This document shows positions 1 to 9,716 of a stretch of 64,000 bases of DNA, one piece after another. Below the pieces are notes generated by a model. The model did no database searches. It saw nothing but the letters and a program-made list of their open reading frames with translations, and was not told the origin of the DNA. How positions within the stretch are numbered: position 1 is the stretch's first letter; each line of letters begins with the position of its first letter. Position numbers and translations under genes: made by a program. This DNA comes from Hamadaea tsunoensis DSM 44101. Lineage in GTDB: Bacteria; Actinomycetota; Actinomycetes; Mycobacteriales; Micromonosporaceae. The stretch spans positions 1 through 64,000 of the forward strand of contig NZ_AUAX01000003.1 of assembly GCF_000428945.1 (NCBI RefSeq), read 5' to 3'.

Positions 1-666
1 TACCGGGGGGTGGGGCAGCTCGCCCGGGCCGTCGACGCGCTGCGCGACCACTTCTACGACTGCGTGGACTCCTTCGGCGCCGATCACGAGTACACCCTCG
101 CCGCCCGCATGTCGTACGCGAACACACTGCGCGAACGGGGCAGCCGCTCCGACCTCACCCAGGCGCACCTGCTCGCCGAGGAGGCCGCCAGCACCTACCA
201 GCGCATCTTCGAACCCCGCAATCCGCTCACCCTGGTCGCCGAGGTGAACCTGGCCGCCATCCTGCGCGCCGAGGGGGAACGCCAGCGGGCCCGGCAACTG
301 GACGCACTCGCGTACGAAGCACTGCGGGACGCGCTCGGCGAGCGGCACCCGTACACGATCGCGACCGCCGTGAACCGGGCCACCGACCTGTCCCTGGCGG
401 GTGACCGCAAGGGCGCCCTGGAGCTGTCCGAGGAGGCCTTCCGCAAGGCCGCCGAGGGCCGCGGTCCCAGCCACCCGCACACCCTCGCGGCGGGCGCGAA
501 CCTGGTCCTCGACCGGATCGCCGCCGGCGCCACCGAGAGCGCCGAGGAACTGCTGGAACACGTGCTCGGCCGGCTGCGGCGGACACTGAGCACGGACCAT
601 CCGATGATCACGGCTGTCGCGAGTGGAATACGCATCGAATGCGATATAGAACCGCCGGCGACATGA
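1..666 (+). CDS. fxsT: TPR protein of FxSxx-COOH system, 3' fragment
   Basis: Partial gene: the frame is open to the window edge, so the N-terminus, including any NTPase domain, is missing. The visible ~221 residues are tetratricopeptide-like helical repeats of the NB-ARC/TPR kind, with recurring motifs such as GADHEYTLAARMSYAN, RNPLTLVAEVNLA and RHPYTIATAVN. The C-terminus, CDIEPPAT, closely matches the end (GDIEAPPT) of the full-length NB-ARC/TPR protein at 3727-6984, and the repeats also resemble it, so these are paralogs. TPR proteins of this kind accompany FxsA/FxsB peptides in actinobacteria; their role is unknown, perhaps sensing or scaffolding. It precedes fxsA on the same strand by 210 bp with a hairpin between them. 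Confidence is good for the family and moderate for the system assignment. Confidence 0.75.
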   Translation, partial: YRGVGQLARAVDALRDHFYDCVDSFGADHEYTLAARMSYANTLRERGSRSDLTQAHLLAEEAASTYQRIFEPRNPLTLVAEVNLAAILRAEGERQRARQLDALAYEALRDALGERHPYTIATAVNRATDLSLAGDRKGALELSEEAFRKAAEGRGPSHPHTLAAGANLVLDRIAAGATESAEELLEHVLGRLRRTLSTDHPMITAVASGIRIECDIEPPAT

Positions 667-789
667 GCCCGCGTCGCCTGCCTGACAGCTGATTCCGTAC
701 TTTTCCGCAGGCCATTCGTCAAGAATCGTCAAGACGGGTTTCACCCGTCGCGCGACGGCTTCGTGGAAGCCATCATACACGTGACAGGT

Positions 790-823
790 GAGCACACCCC
801 CGCTCAAGAGCGGGGGTGTGCTC
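790..823 (+). terminator. Perfect 15-bp hairpin between TPR gene and fxsA
   Basis: Arms 790-804 and 809-823 are exactly complementary (gagcacacccccgct / agcgggggtgtgctc) around a 4-nt loop, caag. There is no T-run after it, so it may be a weak terminator for the TPR gene or a structured leader element of the fxsA transcript, which starts translation 53 nt downstream. Confidence 0.55.
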
Positions 824-876
824 GCTTCCCGTGTCGTGATCGCCAGATCCCGGCCACAATATATGGAGGTCCATCG

Positions 877-1062
877 TTGAACGCACCGGCGACGGGCAGA
901 CCGGAGTGGGCACCTCTGGTCGACGTATCCACCATGTCCATGAGCGACCTGATCGGCAACTCCGACTCGGTCCTGGCCAAGTCCGTCCAGCGGCTCGCCG
1001 ACAGCCTCGACGACCCTGACGGGATCATTTCCGCCTTCCAGTCGTTCACGTCCGCATCATGA
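877..1062 (+). CDS. fxsA: FxSxx-COOH RiPP precursor peptide
   Basis: A 61-residue precursor of a ribosomally made, post-translationally modified peptide. I chose the TTG start at 877 because a strong Shine-Dalgarno GGAGGT lies at 865-870 with 6-nt spacing; upstream in-frame ATG/GTG codons run through the hairpin and have no ribosome site. The leader is moderately acidic (PLVDVSTMSMSDLIGNSD). The C-terminus is F54-Q-S56-F57-T-S59-A-S61: the last five residues fit the defining FxSxx-COOH pattern, and a second FxS tripeptide lies directly before it. In this family FxsB installs a cyclophane crosslink from the aromatic ring to the Ser of an aromatic-x-Ser motif. The stop overlaps the fxsB ATG by 4 bp (ATGA at 1059), so maturase translation is coupled to that of the precursor. 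Product structure and activity are unknown. Confidence 0.88.
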   Translation: MNAPATGRPEWAPLVDVSTMSMSDLIGNSDSVLAKSVQRLADSLDDPDGIISAFQSFTSAS

Positions 1063-2354
1063 TCGATCCGGCGGTCATGATCGATGCGGGCGGCCCGGTG
1101 CCGGCTCCCGCTCTCGGTGTGGCCGCCGGGTCTGTCGACGAGGGTCACCGCCGCGCCGCGGCGTGGCCCTATGCGGAGTTGGACATAGCGGCGCTCCGGG
1201 CGTCGGGCTGGCGGCCCACCCCGGTGCGGGAGTTCATTCTCAAGATCCATCAACGGTGCAATCTGGCCTGCGACTACTGCTACGTGTACGAGTCGGCGGA
1301 CCAGAGCTGGCGCGACCGCCCGGCGGCGATGCCCGTCGAAGTACGCCAGGCGGCGGTCGCGGCGATCGGCACCCACGTACGCCGGCACGAGCTGACCCGG
1401 ATCCGGATCGTCCTGCACGGCGGCGAGCCGCTGCTCTACGGCCTGGACCGGATCGCCGCACTGATCGCGGAGGTACGCGCGGGCGTACCGGCGACCTGCG
1501 CGGTGGAGTTCGGCATGCAGACGAACGCCGTCCTGCTCACCGCCCCGGCCCTGGTACGCCTGCGGGAGCTGGGTGTCGTCGTCGGCGTCTCGGTCGACGG
1601 GGTCGAGGCCGACCACGACCGGCACCGGGTGACCCGGGCCGGCAAGGGCAGCTTCGCGTCCGTCTCGCGCGCGCTCGGCCTGCTCCGGTCGCCCGAGTAC
1701 CAGGCCGTCTACGGCGGGCTGCTGTGCACGGTCTCGCCCGAGAGCGATCCGATCGCCTGCTACGAGCAGCTGCTGGCGTTCGCGCCGCCGCTCATCGATT
1801 TCCTGCTGCCGCACGCCAACTGGGCGTACCCGCCGTCGCGGCCGGCCGGGTCGCCGACCGCGTACGCGGACTGGCTCATCGCCGTCTTCGATCGCTGGTA
1901 CGACGCGGGCGGGCCGATGCGCGTACGGATCTTCGAAGACGTGATCAACCTGCTGCTCGGCGGGCCCAGCCGCTCCGAGCAGGCGGGACTGAGCCCGGCC
2001 GCGATCTGCGTCGTCGAATCGGACGGGGCCCTGGAACAGGTCGACGCCCTCAAGTCCACGTACGCCGGCGCCTGTGCCACCGGCCTCAACGTCCTCACCG
2101 ACGACCTCGACCGGCTGCTGGAGCACCCCGGGGTGATCGCGCGGCAGATCGGCGTACAGGCGCTGTCCGACGACTGCCTCGCCTGCCCGATCCACCGGGT
2201 CTGCGGTGGCGGCCACTACGCCCACCGGTACGCCCCGGTCACGGGGTTCCGCAACACCTCGGCGTACTGCGCCGACATGCAGAAGCTGATCAACTACATC
2301 TGGAAACGCCTCGACGCCGACGTCCGCCGGCTCGCGGTGTGGGGGAAGGCATGA
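1059..2354 (+). CDS. fxsB: Radical SAM/SPASM peptide maturase FxsB
   Basis: A 431-aa radical S-adenosylmethionine enzyme. The Fe-S signature CxxxCxxC is C67-NLA-C71-DY-C74, followed by Y75. A C-terminal SPASM-type region follows, with C317 and then a Cys-rich segment, CLACPIHRVCGGGHY, and the family-like end FRNTSAYC. FxsB belongs to the group of radical SAM enzymes that form three-residue cyclophanes (triceptide maturases) on FxS motifs; here the substrate should be the FQS/FTS end of FxsA. There is no Shine-Dalgarno before the ATG at 1059, and the ATGA overlap with the fxsA stop suggests translational coupling. An alternative ATG at 1077 is possible. It overlaps the HExxH gene downstream by another 4 bp, giving a tight three-gene operon. 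Confidence 0.92.
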   Translation: MIDPAVMIDAGGPVPAPALGVAAGSVDEGHRRAAAWPYAELDIAALRASGWRPTPVREFILKIHQRCNLACDYCYVYESADQSWRDRPAAMPVEVRQAAVAAIGTHVRRHELTRIRIVLHGGEPLLYGLDRIAALIAEVRAGVPATCAVEFGMQTNAVLLTAPALVRLRELGVVVGVSVDGVEADHDRHRVTRAGKGSFASVSRALGLLRSPEYQAVYGGLLCTVSPESDPIACYEQLLAFAPPLIDFLLPHANWAYPPSRPAGSPTAYADWLIAVFDRWYDAGGPMRVRIFEDVINLLLGGPSRSEQAGLSPAAICVVESDGALEQVDALKSTYAGACATGLNVLTDDLDRLLEHPGVIARQIGVQALSDDCLACPIHRVCGGGHYAHRYAPVTGFRNTSAYCADMQKLINYIWKRLDADVRRLAVWGKA

Positions 2355-3652
2355 GCATCTACCACGAACTGCCCTCGGACGTCTTCGACCGGCTCGCCAC
2401 GGGCGGCGGCGGAGCGGACGCGATCGCGTACCTGCGGCGGGCCCAGCTCAGTCGGCACCGCCAGCTCATCGGCCTGCTGCTGTCGGCCTGGCCCGGGGAT
2501 CCCGCCCAGCGCGACGGCCTGGTCGACGCCCTCGACCGGGCGCAGCGCCAGGACCCCGCCGCCTTCGCCGAGGTCTTCACCGCGCCGCTGGTCGGCGCGT
2601 GGACCGGCATCACGGTCCGCGCCCACCGTCAGGGCCAGGCCACGCCCGCCGACTTCGCGCACCTCGGCGGCTTCACCATGGTCGCCTGCGCCGCCGCGGG
2701 AGTCGACGCGCAGACCACCATTCCGGTACGCGACGGCGAGGCGAGCCTGCCCGGCCTCGGCGTGGCCCTGTTGCCGGGGGCCGACGAAGCGCTCGTGACG
2801 GTCGAGGACAGCCGGTTGACGGTCCGGGGCGGCGGCGCCGTCGTCGAGGTCCCCGCCGACCCGAGCCGACCGGCCGCCGGCTGGCTTCCGGTGTGGATCC
2901 TGGCCAACGCGGCCGACGCGGGCATCCCGGCCCGCATCGAACTCGACGACCTCGACCCGTACCGGCACGGCCACCACGCCCCGCCCGCGAGCCGGCTCGC
3001 CCCGGCCGAGCTGGACCTGTGGCGGGAGAACTTCGCCGACGCCTGGCGGATGCTCGACTCCCGGCTCCCGGGGCGGGCCGCCGAGCTGGCCGCGGGGCTG
3101 CGCGTACTGGTGCCGCTGGCACAGACCGACGCGCGGGCGGCCCGCAGCGCGACGATCCGGCACGCTTTCGGCGTCTTCGGCCTGACCCGGCCGCCGTCGG
3201 TGGCGGACTTCGCGGTCACGCTGGTGCACGAGTTCCAGCACTCGAAGCTGAGCGCGCTGCTCGATCTGGTCCCGATGAGCGACCCGAACGACGGGCGCCG
3301 GTTCTTCGCGCCCTGGCGGCTCGACCCGCGCCCGCTCGCCGGCCTGCTCCAGGGCGTGTACGCCTTCGTCGGCGTCGCCGAAACCTGGTGTGCGCTGCGC
3401 GACGTGCCCGGCATCGGGCAGTTCGCCGAGGAGCAGTTCGCCGAGGCCCGGATCCAGGTCGATCTGGGACTGACCTCGGTCGAGGAGTCCGGCGCGCTCA
3501 CCCCGGCCGGGGAGAACCTCGCGGCGCATCTGCGCCGGGTCACCGACGGGCTGCTCGCGGTGCCGATCCCGGCGCAGACCGCCCAGGCGGCCGAAGCCTC
3601 GTTGGCGGAGAACCGGCAGCGCTGGCTCGACCGGCAGCTCGCCACCGCCTGA
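2351..3652 (+). CDS. HExxH-motif putative peptide-modification protein
   Basis: A 433-aa cytoplasmic protein with a zinc/iron-type HExxH motif at H293-E-F-Q-H297 inside VTLVHEFQHSKL, and a following VGVAETW that could supply a further ligand. Proteins of this family are repeatedly encoded next to fxsA/fxsB. Some HExxH proteins of RiPP clusters have, to my recollection, proved to be 2-oxoglutarate-dependent peptide hydroxylases rather than proteases, so a second modification of FxsA (for example beta-hydroxylation) is as plausible as leader removal. The ATG at 2351 overlaps the fxsB stop by 4 bp and has a GGGGGAAGG ribosome site just before it. The last gene of the operon, it ends 20 bp before a bidirectional terminator. 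Family assignment is firm; the reaction is inferred. Confidence 0.85.
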   Translation: MSIYHELPSDVFDRLATGGGGADAIAYLRRAQLSRHRQLIGLLLSAWPGDPAQRDGLVDALDRAQRQDPAAFAEVFTAPLVGAWTGITVRAHRQGQATPADFAHLGGFTMVACAAAGVDAQTTIPVRDGEASLPGLGVALLPGADEALVTVEDSRLTVRGGGAVVEVPADPSRPAAGWLPVWILANAADAGIPARIELDDLDPYRHGHHAPPASRLAPAELDLWRENFADAWRMLDSRLPGRAAELAAGLRVLVPLAQTDARAARSATIRHAFGVFGLTRPPSVADFAVTLVHEFQHSKLSALLDLVPMSDPNDGRRFFAPWRLDPRPLAGLLQGVYAFVGVAETWCALRDVPGIGQFAEEQFAEARIQVDLGLTSVEESGALTPAGENLAAHLRRVTDGLLAVPIPAQTAQAAEASLAENRQRWLDRQLATA

Positions 3653-3672
3653 CGATTCCTGACCCAATCCCG

Positions 3673-3712
3673 AAAGAAGCCCCCGATCCGGAGACCGGAC
3701 GGGGGCTTCTTT
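3673..3712. terminator. Bidirectional intrinsic terminator
   Basis: Perfect 13-bp inverted repeat with arms 3673-3685 (aaagaagcccccg) and 3700-3712 (cgggggcttcttt), A-rich on one side and T-rich on the other, lying between the convergent HExxH and NB-ARC/TPR genes. Confidence 0.9.
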
Positions 3713-3726
3713 CACGTCGGTACGCC

Positions 3727-6700
3727 TTACGTCGGCGGCGCCTCGATGTCGCCCTCGGTACGCTTGCCCTCCGCCGCCGCCACGACCTCGGGATGACCGT
3801 CGGAGAGCGCGTCGCGCAGGCCGGACAGCGACTCGTCGAAGAGTACGTCCGCCCGCGCCTCCTCGCCGATCGCCCGCAGGTCGTGCGAGAGGTTGATCGC
3901 CCGCATCAGCAGGTACGGGTGCTCGGAGTTGCCGCGGGCCTCGTGCCGGCCGCCGGCCACCTCGCGGGTGAGTTCCAGCATCTGCTCCGACAGGGCGACC
4001 GCCTCGGCGTGCCGGCCCAGGCGCGAGTAGTCCGTGGCCAGCGAGGCGCCGGCACAGATCGTGTACGGGTGGTCGGCGCCGAGGACGTCGGCCAGTTCGG
4101 TGTAGCAGCGCTCGTCGACCTCGGCGGCCCGGTCCATGTCGCCGACCGCCCGCAGGATGATCCCCTGGTTCACCAGCGCGACGAGGGTCAGCGGGTTGCG
4201 CGGGCCGAAGTCCGCCTCGTACCGCGTCAGGGCGTCGCCGATCTGCCGTTCGGCCTCGTCCAGGTCGTTCACCTGGCGCAGGGCGTTGGCGAGGCTGACC
4301 GTGGCGGCGACCGAGAACTCGTGCGCCAGCCCGAACCGGGCCGTGACCCGGCTCTGGTTGATCTGCATCATCTCGACGGCCTCTTCGAGCTGGCCGACCT
4401 TGCGCAGCAGGGTGGCGTGCGTCCGCTCGGCCAGGATGACCTGGCTGTGCGAGGCACCGAACAGGCGCTCCAGCTTGGGCCGGGTGTCGACGACGATCTC
4501 CAGACCGGCCTCGTAGGCGCCCATGCCGTAGTAGCTGCGCGCGACGTTGATCGTGGCGGCGAGCGCCCGGCCGTCGTCGCGGCTGATGTCCAGCCAGTGC
4601 TGGCGGACCTCCTCGTCGAGCCGGACCGCGTCCGGGAAGCGGCCCACCATGCGGTGGTCGACGGCGAGGTTGGACTGGGCGCGCAGGGTGTAGTGCGACC
4701 CTTCGGGGAACACCGACCGGTGCTGGGCGACCAGGTTGGTGTCGAACTCGAGCGCCTCCTTGTACCGGCCCTGGATACGCAGGTCGGCGCCGATCTGGTT
4801 GGCCAGGATCAGCGTGACCTCGTGGGTGGGTCCGATCGCCGGGTTCTCGCTGAGCTCCCGGTACGCCTCGGCGGTGTGCTCGGCGGCCTGGGTCGCCTGG
4901 CCGAGCGTACGCATCGCGTTGGCCAGGTGACCGCGCATGATCTGCGTCATCTCGCCGTGCGGACCCAGTCGGGGGCTCGACGTGTCGACGCGCCAGGCCT
5001 CCCACGCCAGCCGGGCGAGCCGGCGGCTGTTCTCGTAGTCGCCGGTGACGAACAGGGTCCGGACGTGGTCGAGGACGACCTGGCGGCCTTCGACGTTCTG
5101 GGCGTGGATCATGTCCGACGGTTCGAGGTGCGGGCCGATCTCGCGCTGCAGGGCCTCGACGTTGTCCTGGTCGTCCGGGTCGCCGGGGTTCGCCGCGGTG
5201 AGTAGGTTCTGCGCGTTGCGCCGCGTACGCTCGGCCAGCTCCTCGGGGAGGCTGTCGCGCAGCACCAACTGCACGAGCCGGTGGACCTGTACGCGCCGCT
5301 CGGCGTCGATCTTGGCCAGCCCGTACCGGCTGAGGTCGCGCACGATCCGGCTCATGGCGATCGAGGAGCCGAGCGTCTCGCGCAGCGGGCTGCTGATGTC
5401 CGCGTCCTTGCCGAACCGCAGCAGCGACAGCGAGACCGGCTCGCCGCCGAGATAGGACAGCAGCTCGAACAGCTGGGCCGTGGCCAGCGCGCTCTCCCGC
5501 AGCGTCTGCACGGCGACCGTGACGAACGCGGCGACGGTCAGCGGATAGCTCGCCGGCTTGCCCTCGGAGAGCAGGTCGCGGATGTGGTTGTCGAGCAGCG
5601 CGATGTACTCCTTGATGGGCATCGCGGTGGCCAGGTACCAGGCGGCCGCCTGCTCGAGCGCGAGCGGCAGGTCGCCCAGCTTGTCGGCGAGCTCGCCGGC
5701 CTCGACCGAGGAGATGCGCGGCGTGCCGTCGTCGCCCTGCGTACGCCGCTGCAGCAGCTCGACGCTCTCGGCCCGCTCGAAGACGTTGACCTCGATCGCC
5801 TCGCCGACGGTGGACCAGTCGAGGTTCCGGGTCGTGATGATCACGTGGCCGCCCGTGGACGGCAGCAGCTGGTCCAGGTCGGCCGGGTCGTCGGCGTTGT
5901 CGTAGATGAGCAGCCACGACCGGTCTCCCGTGGCCAGCGCGTCGAGCACCGTGCGCGCGGTCTGCTGCCGGTCTTCCAGCACGGGCAGGTCGAGCCGCTC
6001 GGCGAGCTGCGCCAGCGAGGACAGGACCGTCGAGGTCTGCTCCGCCGCGATCCACCACACGATGTTGTATTCGTCGAGGTGCCGGTACACGTACTCGATG
6101 ACGAGCTGCGTCTTGCCGACACCGCCGAGGCCGTGCAGGGTCTGCGGGAGCACGGACGCCTTGGAGCCGATGCGCAGCGCGTCGCTCAGCCGGTCGAGCA
6201 GCACCGCGCGGCCGGTGAAGTTCCGGTTCCGCAGCGGTACGCCGCCGCGGATCGGCGGGAAGTCGTCGCGGCTCGGCCGGGCCGCGACCGTCGGCGGCAC
6301 GGGCCGCTCCTCGCGCTGCGTGGGCGCCACCGGCGGGCGGCCGGCGCCGCGCTCGCTGACGGTCCGCAACGCGGACAGGTCGGACTGGCTGACGCCCAGG
6401 CCGCCGGCCACCAGGTCGGTCCAGCGCCGCAGGTCTGCGCCCTTCGTCCCGCCGACCATGTGGGCCAGCCGGTCGATGAAGGTCAGCAGCTGGGGTACGC
6501 CGTCGTCCGGCAGCGGCAGCGCCTCGAGCATCCGGATCGCCTCGGACAGGTCGAGCCAGGCGCGCAGCGAGCGCAGGTCGTCGGCGTCGACGAGGTTGTT
6601 CACGGCGTCGGCGACCAGCGGCAGCGGAATCGCGGCCAGGTGCGCGGCGAGCGCCTCCCGGTCCTGTGTGGACAGCAGCGCGTCGCCGCTGTCCTCGGCG

Positions 6701-6984
6701 AGGGCGCTGACGGCCGACAGATCCTCGCCCGGCGAGTGCGTCCGCACGATCTGCGCCAGCGCGGGCAGGCCACCGCTGAAGAACGCGCAGGCCCGCACGA
6801 TGGCGTTGAGATCGCGCCGGGCATCGGCGAACCGGGTGGCGTCCAGCGGCCGGCGCAGGCTCGCCTCCAACTCCTCCATGCACTGGTCGCGCACGTCGGA
6901 GTCGCGCAGGCTGTCGAGCCGCAGGAGCGCTTCGAGCAGACTGTCGAGCCGGCTGGAGCCGAGAATCGTTTCCGACACGGGCAC
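3727..6984 (-). CDS. fxsT: NB-ARC/TPR protein of FxSxx-COOH system
   Basis: A 1085-aa multidomain protein. Residues ~10-200 form a helical N-terminal region that resembles the effector-associated/death-like adaptor domains of actinobacterial NTPase conflict systems (tentative). A Pro-rich linker follows at ~215-250, then a STAND/NB-ARC ATPase with Walker A GLGGVGKT at 285-292, a Walker B-like LLIYDNADD and the TTRN (sensor) segment near residues 355-390. From ~600 to the end are TPR-type repeats. The tail is GDIEAPPT, matching the upstream TPR fragment at 1-666. The GTG start at 6984 is preceded by ggggaatga. Such proteins co-occur with FxsA/FxsB and look like signalling or sensor switches; whether this one regulates, scaffolds or exports the peptide is unknown. 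It is convergent with the biosynthetic genes. Confidence 0.85.
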   Translation of the reverse strand: MPVSETILGSSRLDSLLEALLRLDSLRDSDVRDQCMEELEASLRRPLDATRFADARRDLNAIVRACAFFSGGLPALAQIVRTHSPGEDLSAVSALAEDSGDALLSTQDREALAAHLAAIPLPLVADAVNNLVDADDLRSLRAWLDLSEAIRMLEALPLPDDGVPQLLTFIDRLAHMVGGTKGADLRRWTDLVAGGLGVSQSDLSALRTVSERGAGRPPVAPTQREERPVPPTVAARPSRDDFPPIRGGVPLRNRNFTGRAVLLDRLSDALRIGSKASVLPQTLHGLGGVGKTQLVIEYVYRHLDEYNIVWWIAAEQTSTVLSSLAQLAERLDLPVLEDRQQTARTVLDALATGDRSWLLIYDNADDPADLDQLLPSTGGHVIITTRNLDWSTVGEAIEVNVFERAESVELLQRRTQGDDGTPRISSVEAGELADKLGDLPLALEQAAAWYLATAMPIKEYIALLDNHIRDLLSEGKPASYPLTVAAFVTVAVQTLRESALATAQLFELLSYLGGEPVSLSLLRFGKDADISSPLRETLGSSIAMSRIVRDLSRYGLAKIDAERRVQVHRLVQLVLRDSLPEELAERTRRNAQNLLTAANPGDPDDQDNVEALQREIGPHLEPSDMIHAQNVEGRQVVLDHVRTLFVTGDYENSRRLARLAWEAWRVDTSSPRLGPHGEMTQIMRGHLANAMRTLGQATQAAEHTAEAYRELSENPAIGPTHEVTLILANQIGADLRIQGRYKEALEFDTNLVAQHRSVFPEGSHYTLRAQSNLAVDHRMVGRFPDAVRLDEEVRQHWLDISRDDGRALAATINVARSYYGMGAYEAGLEIVVDTRPKLERLFGASHSQVILAERTHATLLRKVGQLEEAVEMMQINQSRVTARFGLAHEFSVAATVSLANALRQVNDLDEAERQIGDALTRYEADFGPRNPLTLVALVNQGIILRAVGDMDRAAEVDERCYTELADVLGADHPYTICAGASLATDYSRLGRHAEAVALSEQMLELTREVAGGRHEARGNSEHPYLLMRAINLSHDLRAIGEEARADVLFDESLSGLRDALSDGHPEVVAAAEGKRTEGDIEAPPT

Positions 6985-8612: not shown

Positions 8613-9716
8613 TCACCCCCACCAGAAGAGCGTGGCGATGACCGCGTAGAGCGCGATCATGACCGCCCCTTCGAGCCAGTTGCTCTCCCCGTCGAACATC
8701 GCGAGCGCGAGGATGACCACCGTCAGCAGCACCGCCGCCACCAGCAGCGGGGCGAAGACCAGCGTGAGCGTGGTCGCGGTGAGGAGGCTGAGCAGGACCA
8801 GGGCCGGCGCCATGACCAGCGCGATCTGCAGCGGGCTGTTGATGATGACGCTGACCGCGTAGTTCATCTGGTTGCGGGCGGCGAGCTGGATGCCGACGAC
8901 GTTCTCGATGGCGTTGCCCGCGATGGCCACGATGACGAGGCCCGCGAACGCCTGCGAGATGCCGAGCTGATCCATGGCCGGGGTAAGGGCGGCGACGAAC
9001 CAGTCCGAGACGAAGGCCGCCCCCACGCTCGCGGCAGCCAGCAGCGTGACCGCGAGCCACAGCGGCCACCGCGGCGGCTCGTGCCCGGCGGTGTCGGCGG
9101 GCTCGGCCCCCTTGCGCCGGCGCAGCGAGGCGGGCAGCGACAGCGCGAAGATCCCCAGCAGCACGATGGAGATCACGATGGACAGTGCCCGCTCATGCTG
9201 GGCCACCGGCGCGTGCAGGAGGTCGGCGAGCGCCGGCAGGACCATGGCCGAGGTCGCCAGGAACAGCAGGACGACCGTCGAGCGGATCTGCGCCGAGTCG
9301 AACTTCTGCGACCCGTGCTTCAACCCGCCGACGAGGAAGGCCGCCCCCAGCACCAGCAGGGCGTTGGACAGGATCGAGCCGATGATCGAGGCCTGCACGA
9401 CCCCGATGAGCCCCGCTTTCAGGGCGAAGAAGCCGATGAACAGCTCCGGCAGGTTGCCCAGCGCGCTCTGCAGCACGCCCGTCGCGCCGGCGCCCAGCCG
9501 GTCGCCCAGTTGCTCCACGGATCGGCCGACGAGCGAGGCGAGGAGCGCGACCGCCAGCGCGGCGGCGACGAACGCGACCACCACGGGCAGGCCGGCGTAG
9601 TGGCACAGGGCCGCGAAGCCTATCGCCACCCCAGATCCTATGAGGATCACCAGATCGGAACGGATGAAAAGGGAAGGACGCACGACTGCGGAGGGGGTGG
9701 CGGACATGGCCGCCAT
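8613..9716 (-). CDS. Ca2+/cation antiporter (CaCA/CAX family)
   Basis: A 367-aa polytopic inner-membrane exchanger. The duplicated alpha-repeats of the CaCA superfamily are visible: SALGNLPELFIGFFALKAG near residues 85-102 and AIAGNAIENVVGIQLAARN in the second half, each with the acidic residue used for cation binding. About 11 hydrophobic helices are present with a basic/acidic loop (LRRRKGAEPADTAGHE) between halves. It probably exchanges Ca2+ for H+ in the manner of ChaA/Cax. The start is uncertain (ATG 9716 or 9707; an upstream TTG at 9734 is less likely); no clear ribosome site is seen. It is upstream of the DUF4396 gene on the same strand but separated by 209 bp. Confidence 0.88.
   Translation of the reverse strand: MAAMSATPSAVVRPSLFIRSDLVILIGSGVAIGFAALCHYAGLPVVVAFVAAALAVALLASLVGRSVEQLGDRLGAGATGVLQSALGNLPELFIGFFALKAGLIGVVQASIIGSILSNALLVLGAAFLVGGLKHGSQKFDSAQIRSTVVLLFLATSAMVLPALADLLHAPVAQHERALSIVISIVLLGIFALSLPASLRRRKGAEPADTAGHEPPRWPLWLAVTLLAAASVGAAFVSDWFVAALTPAMDQLGISQAFAGLVIVAIAGNAIENVVGIQLAARNQMNYAVSVIINSPLQIALVMAPALVLLSLLTATTLTLVFAPLLVAAVLLTVVILALAMFDGESNWLEGAVMIALYAVIATLFWWG

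What the first reader, a model, noticed from the sequence alone, without database searches (positions are those of the whole stretch)
1..6984. FxSxx-COOH RiPP cluster with split and convergent TPR partners
The sequence shows a precursor ending in FxSxx-COOH, a radical SAM/SPASM enzyme, a HExxH protein and an NB-ARC/TPR protein. FxsB-type enzymes make cyclophane crosslinks on FxS motifs, but the biological role of this system and the product of this cluster are unknown to me. The co-occurring NTPase/TPR proteins hint at a sensing or conflict function.
Basis: partly seen in the sequence, partly recalled or inferred. Interest (0 to 1): 0.8.

Follow-up and report, generated by a model that had tools for sequence, protein, structure and literature searches.

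The report
Cross-linked peptide cluster with NLR-like receptors
An actinobacterium carries a small gene set that should staple a short peptide at its tail end, next to two immune-receptor-like proteins that may read that peptide; the gene set is of a known kind, and the peptide-receptor link is a proposal still to be tested.

Summary
The cluster is real: FxsA (877-1062), FxsB (1059-2354), an alpha-ketoglutarate (aKG)-HExxH enzyme (2351-3652) and a convergent NB-ARC/TPR protein (3727-6984, minus), preceded by the 3' end of a second NB-ARC/TPR gene (1-666). The "split" TPR is a contig end: the window starts at base 1 of contig C3; the missing front half is most likely on contig C58. NCBI models name the system, and eLife 2020 (PMC7159879) tied it to conflict systems, so the kind is known. 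An FxsB-type enzyme joins Phe C4 to Ser Cbeta; the peptide here ends FQS-FTS-AS, two adjacent triads. Less expected is the receptor: EAD2 plus VMAP-M0 fused to NB-ARC-TPR, whereas in Actinomadura-type loci those two domains head a separate VMAP protein nearby. The five-gene layout recurs in 10 of 14 loci with the closest FxsB (one, L057, has FxsB alone). In 12 relatives no other flanking gene family is in more than 4 loci, so no common exporter or protease was seen. Best reading: a cytoplasmic, C-terminally stapled peptide is the ligand of an NLR-like receptor that signals through EAD2. The ligand step is inferred, not shown.

The parts
1..666 (+). 3' end of an upstream NB-ARC/TPR gene (TPR1), cut by the contig end
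   Evidence: NF040586 positions 609-830; window = contig C3 from base 1; front half most likely on C58 (inference)
790..823 (.). perfect inverted repeat, 16-bp arms, probable terminator of TPR1
   Evidence: z -8.0; of 10 relatives examined only L060 has any arm of 10 bp or more in that gap, a different 11-bp one
877..1062 (+). FxsA precursor, 61 aa, TTG start with GGAGG upstream, ends SAFQSFTSAS-COOH
1059..2354 (+). FxsB, radical SAM/SPASM cyclophane-forming maturase, CxxxCxxC at residues 67-74
   Evidence: TIGR04269 452.6 bits; PDB ChlB 9gm3, 262 bits; Cys list
2351..3652 (+). aKG-HExxH-type peptide beta-hydroxylase, HEFQH at residues 293-297
   Evidence: TIGR04267 158.5 bits; PDB 22nu 201 bits and ChlH 8s5f 34 bits; motif place
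3672..3713 (.). inverted repeat, 14-bp arms, between the convergent genes; probable two-way terminator
   Evidence: z -6.4; of the 9 relatives with TPR2 examined one, L056, also has a 14-bp repeat there
3727..6984 (-). TPR2: EAD2 (18-87), VMAP-M0 (105-204), NB-ARC (282-447), TPR superhelix (last helix ends at 1071), C-terminal tail DIEAPPT

Best explanation
FxsB joins each Phe to the Ser two residues on in FQS and FTS, giving two small C-terminal rings; the HExxH enzyme then hydroxylates a nearby side chain, the conserved [DH]D.[DN]G stretch being the likeliest place. The peptide stays in the cytoplasm with its tail free. The TPR superhelix of the convergent STAND protein (TPR2) binds that modified C-terminus and so sets the state of its NB-ARC switch; opening exposes EAD2, which oligomerises with itself or with the EAD2 of the second Fxs receptor in the genome (contig C31, beside the TIR protein FxsC). 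TPR1, fast-evolving and perhaps with an HTH-like head, is a second reader, maybe transcriptional or the invader sensor. Shown here: gene content, domain architecture, conserved layout, intact catalytic motifs, predicted receptor fold. Established for relatives in print: cyclophane and hydroxylation chemistry. Inferred: which residues are modified, that the peptide stays inside and is the ligand, the direction of switching, and the downstream effector.
For: Family matches. FxsB-type enzyme MscB makes C4(Phe)-Cbeta(Ser) (PMC11002830, passages of section 16; that its IPR026335 is the FxsB family is recalled). HExxH enzyme ChlH hydroxylates Asp/His after the cyclophane is in place (PMC12636437, passages) and shares HExxH and the PWRxDxRP block with P0003. 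Layout in 10 of the 14 loci with the closest FxsB; TPR1 and TPR2 each one clade, support 100/100. Among 107 non-core flanking ORFs of 12 relatives no family is in more than 4 loci. FxsB and NF040586 co-occur: 17 of 18 FxsB genomes against 11 of 132 others (not corrected for kinship). TPR2 heads: EAD2 over cut-off in 10 of 11, VMAP-M0 in 8 of 11. The model (pLDDT 87.3) matches a STAND-TPR protein, APPBP2 with its RxxGP degron, Apaf-1 and NRC resistosomes.
Against: No binding or activity evidence of any kind. No catalytic effector in the cluster. At E 0.001 this genome has only two EAD2 matches, both Fxs receptors, and its single VMAP-C protein is not among them, so recruitment of a VMAP is not supported here. 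NF040586 occurs without FxsB in 11 of 150 genomes; 6 of 35 collection loci and 7 of 23 order-sampled loci with FxsB show no NB-ARC/TPR hit in the fetched stretch, some of them near contig ends. L057, with an FxsB 63% identical, has none of the partners. No PADLOC match for the receptor. A family with an MFS member recurs in 14 of 35 loci of other types, so export is possible elsewhere. TM-scores of the fold matches are low over the whole chain (0.17-0.37 for the ranks shown as best).
Confidence: 0.42

Rival explanations
1. The modified peptide is itself the effector: a toxin or amplifying signal held in check or released by the STAND receptors, as proposed in eLife 2020.
For: [quoted passage not shown] no catalytic effector domain was matched in the cluster.
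Against: No flanking family that could be an immunity gene or a leader peptidase is shared by more than 4 of 12 relatives, so release of a fragment would need an enzyme from elsewhere or the HExxH protein itself.
Confidence: 0.2
2. An ordinary secreted RiPP (signal or antibiotic); the TPR proteins are cluster regulators or immunity proteins.
For: FxsB and aKG-HExxH enzymes belong to RiPP maturation families; STAND-TPR proteins also serve as regulators (recalled); the TPR1 head looks HTH-like by a weak fold match; a family with an MFS member is linked in 14 of 35 loci of other types.
Against: No exporter or leader peptidase family is shared among the 12 window-type relatives examined (mechanical gene calls, so small genes can be missed). 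EAD2 and VMAP-M0 were described from conflict systems (PMC7159879).
Confidence: 0.2
3. The HExxH protein is a zincin peptidase that cuts the precursor, as stated in eLife 2020, rather than a hydroxylase.
For: HExxH motif; printed claim in PMC7159879 section 24.
Against: TIGR04267 (aKG-HExxH hydroxylase) 158.5 against 40 bits; homology to ChlH, shown to be an aKG-dependent hydroxylase. A related HEXXH enzyme cleaves backbone oxidatively (title and passages of PMC12636437), so release of a fragment is not excluded.
Confidence: 0.1
4. Chance neighbourhood: a RiPP cluster next to unrelated NB-ARC/TPR genes in a genome rich in them.
For: 45 NB-ARC matches in 9.48 Mb; 11 of 150 genomes have NF040586 without FxsB; L057 has FxsB with no partners.
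Against: Same order and strands in 10 of 14 loci, both receptors monophyletic; co-occurrence p 3e-14 without correction for kinship.
Confidence: 0.03

Closest known systems
FxSxx-COOH / FxsB system (NCBIfam TIGR04268, TIGR04269, TIGR04267, NF040586)
   Same: All four protein types present and, but for the precursor, over the curated cut-offs.
   Different: Precursor has tandem triads FQS-FTS and scores 24 against 28; no FxsC (TIR) match on contig C3, though the genome has two over cut-off (C19, C2) and weaker ones on C31 and C36.
Peptide-processing systems coupled to VMAP-ternary conflict systems (eLife 2020, PMC7159879)
   Same: Precursor + HExxH + radical SAM + AP-ATPase(NB-ARC)-TPR; the paper also names stand-alone versions (section 24).
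   Different: Here the NB-ARC/TPR carries EAD2-VMAP-M0 where the passages I read name TIR or MinD/ParA; two receptors flank the cluster; the only VMAP-C match of the genome lies on contig C13.
Triceptides / three-residue cyclophane enzymes (MscB; ChlB-ChlH)
   Same: FxsB is homologous to ChlB (262 bits); the core holds F-x-S.
   Different: Core at the extreme C-terminus; enzymes are separate proteins, not an rSAM-HExxH fusion (fusion described in PMC12636437, passages).
NLR / STAND receptors (Apaf-1, plant NRC; bacterial Avs recalled)
   Same: NB-ARC plus sensor repeats plus adaptor head; Foldseek matches to STAND-TPR, Apaf-1 and NRC.
   Different: Candidate ligand is a self-made modified peptide encoded next door; head is EAD2-M0; no phage sensing shown.

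Membership tests
FxSxx-COOH system | FxsB-family radical SAM/SPASM over TIGR04269 cut-off | tested here: met
   452.6 against 370 bits
FxSxx-COOH system | Precursor ending F-x-S-x-x-COOH, over TIGR04268 cut-off | tested here: inconclusive
   Ends FTSAS, E 3.4e-5, but 24 against 28 bits; of 8 window-type precursors scored (window and 7 relatives) 2 pass, L053 37.5 and L052 33.7
FxSxx-COOH system | FxSxx_TPR protein over NF040586 cut-off | tested here: met
   822.6 against 300 bits
FxSxx-COOH system | FxsC TIR-like protein (an optional part) | tested here: not met
   No match on C3 or C58 at E 0.001. With a home-made profile of two sequences FxsC is near FxsB in 3 of 35 collection loci and 10 of 23 order-sampled loci
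aKG-HExxH beta-hydroxylase | HExxH and the downstream PWRxDxRP block of ChlH | tested here: met
aKG-HExxH beta-hydroxylase | aKG/iron-dependent hydroxylation | not testable with these tools
   needs enzyme assay
Three-residue cyclophane RiPP (triceptide) | Aromatic-x-[S/N] triad in the core | tested here: met
   F-x-S or F-x-N in 13 of the 13 window-type precursors found
Three-residue cyclophane RiPP (triceptide) | C-C cross-link present | not testable with these tools
   needs mass spectrometry and NMR
VMAP-ternary conflict system | VMAP protein with VMAP-C in the cluster, with MoxR and vWA | tested here: not met
   The only VMAP-C match of the genome is on C13; MoxR and vWA not searched
STAND (AP-ATPase) receptor | NB-ARC with P-loop and C-terminal repeats | tested here: met
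   NB-ARC 32.6 against 23.5 bits, GLGGVGKT, fold match to STAND-TPR 6mfv

The most novel reading that the evidence does not exclude
A bacterial NLR-like receptor whose resting or triggering ligand is a self-made, C-terminally stapled and hydroxylated peptide: the cell uses radical-SAM and aKG chemistry (both sensitive to iron, SAM and redox upset) to write a molecular password, and loss or change of that password on attack lets the EAD2 head assemble a death or signalling complex. The paired receptors would split the work: a slower-evolving reader of the peptide (TPR2, mean 55% identity between clades) and a faster-evolving reader of invaders (TPR1, 36%).
Probability: 0.15. Interest if true: 0.87.

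Novelty: new variant of a known kind. Interest (0 to 1): 0.5.

Why it matters
The chemistry of FxsB and aKG-HExxH enzymes is being worked out in print, but in the papers and listings that I saw the purpose of FxSxx peptides is only proposed. EAD2 and VMAP-M0 fused to the co-inherited receptor, and a peptide module without a shared exporter, turn a loose conflict association into one direct test: does the TPR domain bind the modified peptide tail? If so, it would be a made-to-order small ligand for an NLR-like switch in bacteria.

Tried and rejected
Split gene: rejected, contig end. VMAP recruitment through EAD2 in this genome: not supported, no VMAP-C protein with an EAD2 match. Hairpin at 790-823 as a conserved element: rejected, absent from 9 of 10 relatives examined, and the one in L060 differs. 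Pairing of contig ends by synteny of the C58 genes: no informative match. Actinomadura EAD2 protein as a nucleotide cyclase: my reading of its letters, not confirmed by Pfam or by PDB searches. TPR1 head as HTH: no Pfam HTH match (the one line is a non-significant CetZ_C); best folds are XRE-type regulators with probability up to 0.95 but E 0.26 or worse, so weak. Known defence system: PADLOC gives nothing for P0003-P0005 and only viperin-type radical SAM matches (42 and 24.6 bits) for FxsB. Dropped rows: L057 (FxsB alone) was left out because it has no partner genes; L058 counts as lacking TPR1 and TPR2 because its one NB-ARC hit (184 bits) is another gene. Literature: FxSxx-COOH is in 2 held papers, one of them a fungicide study; further listings showed no functional test of the system; most subscription papers are not held, so this is no proof that none exists.
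Full report
What is there. The window is bases 1-64000 of contig C3 of a 9.48 Mb, 68-contig genome. Its first 7 kb hold FxsA (877-1062), FxsB (1059-2354) and an aKG-HExxH protein (2351-3652) on the plus strand, overlapping by 4 bases each, then a convergent NB-ARC/TPR protein on the minus strand (3727-6984; here called TPR2). Upstream, bases 1-666 encode the last 221 residues of another NB-ARC/TPR protein (TPR1). NCBIfam assigns FxsB, HExxH and TPR2 to the FxSxx-COOH families over cut-off; the precursor is at 24 against 28 bits. Of 8 window-type precursors scored, counting the window, 2 pass, so the group looks off-centre for that model.

The split. TPR1 is cut by the contig end. Bases 1-737 of C3 match C44 at 98.6%, and bases 1-796 of C58 and C19 match at 98.4%; a repeat inside the gene probably broke the assembly (inference). 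C58 carries the front of an NB-ARC/TPR gene that falls inside the TPR1 clade (10 rows, support 100/100), its head 52% identical to that of L051 TPR1. So window TPR1 is most likely C58 plus C3; pairing of C58 with C44 is not excluded.

The precursor. Of the 13 window-type precursors found, 13 have F-x-S or F-x-N in a conserved context (S[AS]F.[SN]) and 9 have a second [FY]-x-S directly behind it. The window ends FQS-FTS-AS. In one search residues 15-56 match positions 1-42 of the 44-position model, which puts S56 at position 42 and makes FQS the canonical triad. Other types vary: F-D-N or F-T-N near the C-terminus in Actinomadura, FGNAV-COOH on own contig C19. No signal-peptide program was run; none is evident by eye.

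The enzymes. FxsB has the CxxxCxxC motif (67-74) and further cysteines fitting SPASM and is homologous to ChlB (9gm3, 262 bits). MscB joins Phe C4 to Ser Cbeta (PMC11002830, passages of section 16); that MscB's IPR026335 is the FxsB family is recalled. The HExxH protein aligns with ChlH and with PDB 22nu through HExxH and the PWRxDxRP block; ChlH hydroxylates Asp and His, which depends on a cyclophane already made (PMC12636437, passages; the primary paper is not held). The conserved [DH]D.[DN]G before the triads is a plausible site; that is inference.

The receptor. TPR2 is EAD2 - VMAP-M0 - NB-ARC - TPR. Of 11 TPR2 proteins, EAD2 is over the Pfam cut-off in 10 (L054 at 22.6 against 23.8) and VMAP-M0 in 8; no M0 match appeared in L052, L054 and L061. 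In the three Actinomadura-type loci whose VMAP protein I scanned (L063, L069, L074) the same pair heads a separate EAD2-M0-VMAP-C protein, and in the three loci scanned for it (L066, L069, L074) another protein ends in EAD2. A module fused in one lineage and separate but neighbouring in another argues that the parts work together. The passages and section of eLife 2020 that I read (supplements and figures not seen) name TIR or MinD/ParA heads for this AP-ATPase, not this one. The AlphaFold2 model (pLDDT 87.3, pTM 0.66) matches STAND-TPR 6mfv (E 2e-11), APPBP2 with its RxxGP degron (2e-8), Apaf-1 (3e-8) and NRC resistosomes, with low whole-chain TM-scores. That RxxGP is read as a C-terminus is recalled; the match shows that such a superhelix can hold a peptide end, as analogy and not proof.

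Conservation. Of the 35 FxsB loci from the genome collection, 29 have an NB-ARC/TPR hit of 80 bits or more and 18 an HExxH hit; L082 is cut by its contig end. In 23 further loci drawn from 150 genomes of the order, 16 have NB-ARC/TPR and 17 HExxH in the fetched stretch. Over the 150 genomes 18 have FxsB, 28 have NF040586 at E 1e-100 or better, 17 have both (Fisher p 3e-14, not corrected for kinship). The 14 loci with FxsB 59% or more identical to the window's are the window, L051-L062 and L075. In these, FxsA, FxsB and HExxH stand together in 13, TPR1 in 11, TPR2 in 11, both receptors in 10; L057 has FxsB alone, L058 lacks both receptors, L062 lacks TPR2, and L075 begins too near its contig end to show TPR1. 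Outside the family, L104 also has two NB-ARC/TPR genes around the cluster. Among 107 non-core flanking ORFs of 12 relatives (L057 left out), no family is in more than 4 loci, and those with 4 are Catellatospora and Hamadaea only. My gene calls are mechanical, so small genes can be missed. In other types a family with an MFS member (one member scanned) is in 14 of 35 loci.

Rates. Mean identity between the three clades of window-type loci is FxsB 0.62, HExxH 0.57, TPR2 0.55, FxsA 0.44, TPR1 0.36 (10 loci, 9 for TPR2; TPR1 of the window taken from C58). TPR2 nearly keeps pace with the enzymes and TPR1 does not.

Against. At E 0.001 EAD2 is matched only twice in this genome, in TPR2 and in its relative on C31; the one VMAP-C protein, on C13, is not among them. 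Thus the published idea that EAD2 recruits VMAP signalling parts does not fit here, and self-assembly or pairing with C31 is more likely. C31 has FxsC, a TIR protein, in the same locus (TIR_2 129 bits; FxsC model 129.6 against 130), which offers an effector in trans. FxsB loci without receptors exist (6 of 35, 7 of 23), as do NF040586 genomes without FxsB (11 of 150). There is no experimental evidence for any step beyond homology.

Verdict. A known system, a new receptor variant, and a sharper hypothesis. The chemistry I would put at about 0.85, the peptide as receptor ligand at about 0.42; the checking round changed denominators but not these odds.

Noticed in passing
G000 contig C31, locus L049:7513-13427: A second EAD2-NB-ARC-TPR receptor with its own HExxH enzyme, a TIR protein (FxsC, 0.4 bits under its cut-off) and a 72-aa precursor-like ORF (8818-9036) with G-W-N-S-F near the end, which no NCBIfam model matches; no FxsB match on C31, so modified in trans or not cyclised.
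   Followed up: partly
window:3727-3750 (C-terminus of TPR2) and relatives: The extreme C-terminus of most of these TPR proteins is conserved as [DV]-[ILV]-[DE]-P-x-x(-x)-COOH although the helix before it varies; D1079, I1080, E1081 are kept in 27, 24 and 24 of 30 rows, and the model orders the tail. Purpose unknown; an internal pseudo-ligand for the groove is one idea.
   Followed up: partly
G000 contig ends C3:1-737 / C44:32-767 and C58:1-796 / C19:1-796: Near-identical part copies of the TPR1 gene at four contig ends: it looks like a recent duplication with one copy 5'-truncated on C19.
   Followed up: partly
L055, L056, L059, L075 next to TPR2: A third NB-ARC-like gene lies divergent from TPR2; the one scanned, L056, has a MinD/ParA-like head over cut-off and NB-ARC below it.
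   Followed up: no
L069:8361-9368 and 8 aligned homologues in Actinomadura loci: EAD2 at the C-terminus behind a conserved domain that reads to me like a nucleotide cyclase (DIAGFS, EDRGDGV); Pfam and PDB searches do not confirm it.
   Followed up: partly
G000 contig C19, locus L047: The genome's other FxsB cluster: FxsC, a ParA-like/TIR/NB-ARC/TPR protein, HExxH, FxsB and a precursor ending FGNAV-COOH.
   Followed up: partly
L057: An FxsB 63% identical to the window's with no FxsA, HExxH or NB-ARC/TPR hit in its 21 kb: a possible orphan.
   Followed up: no
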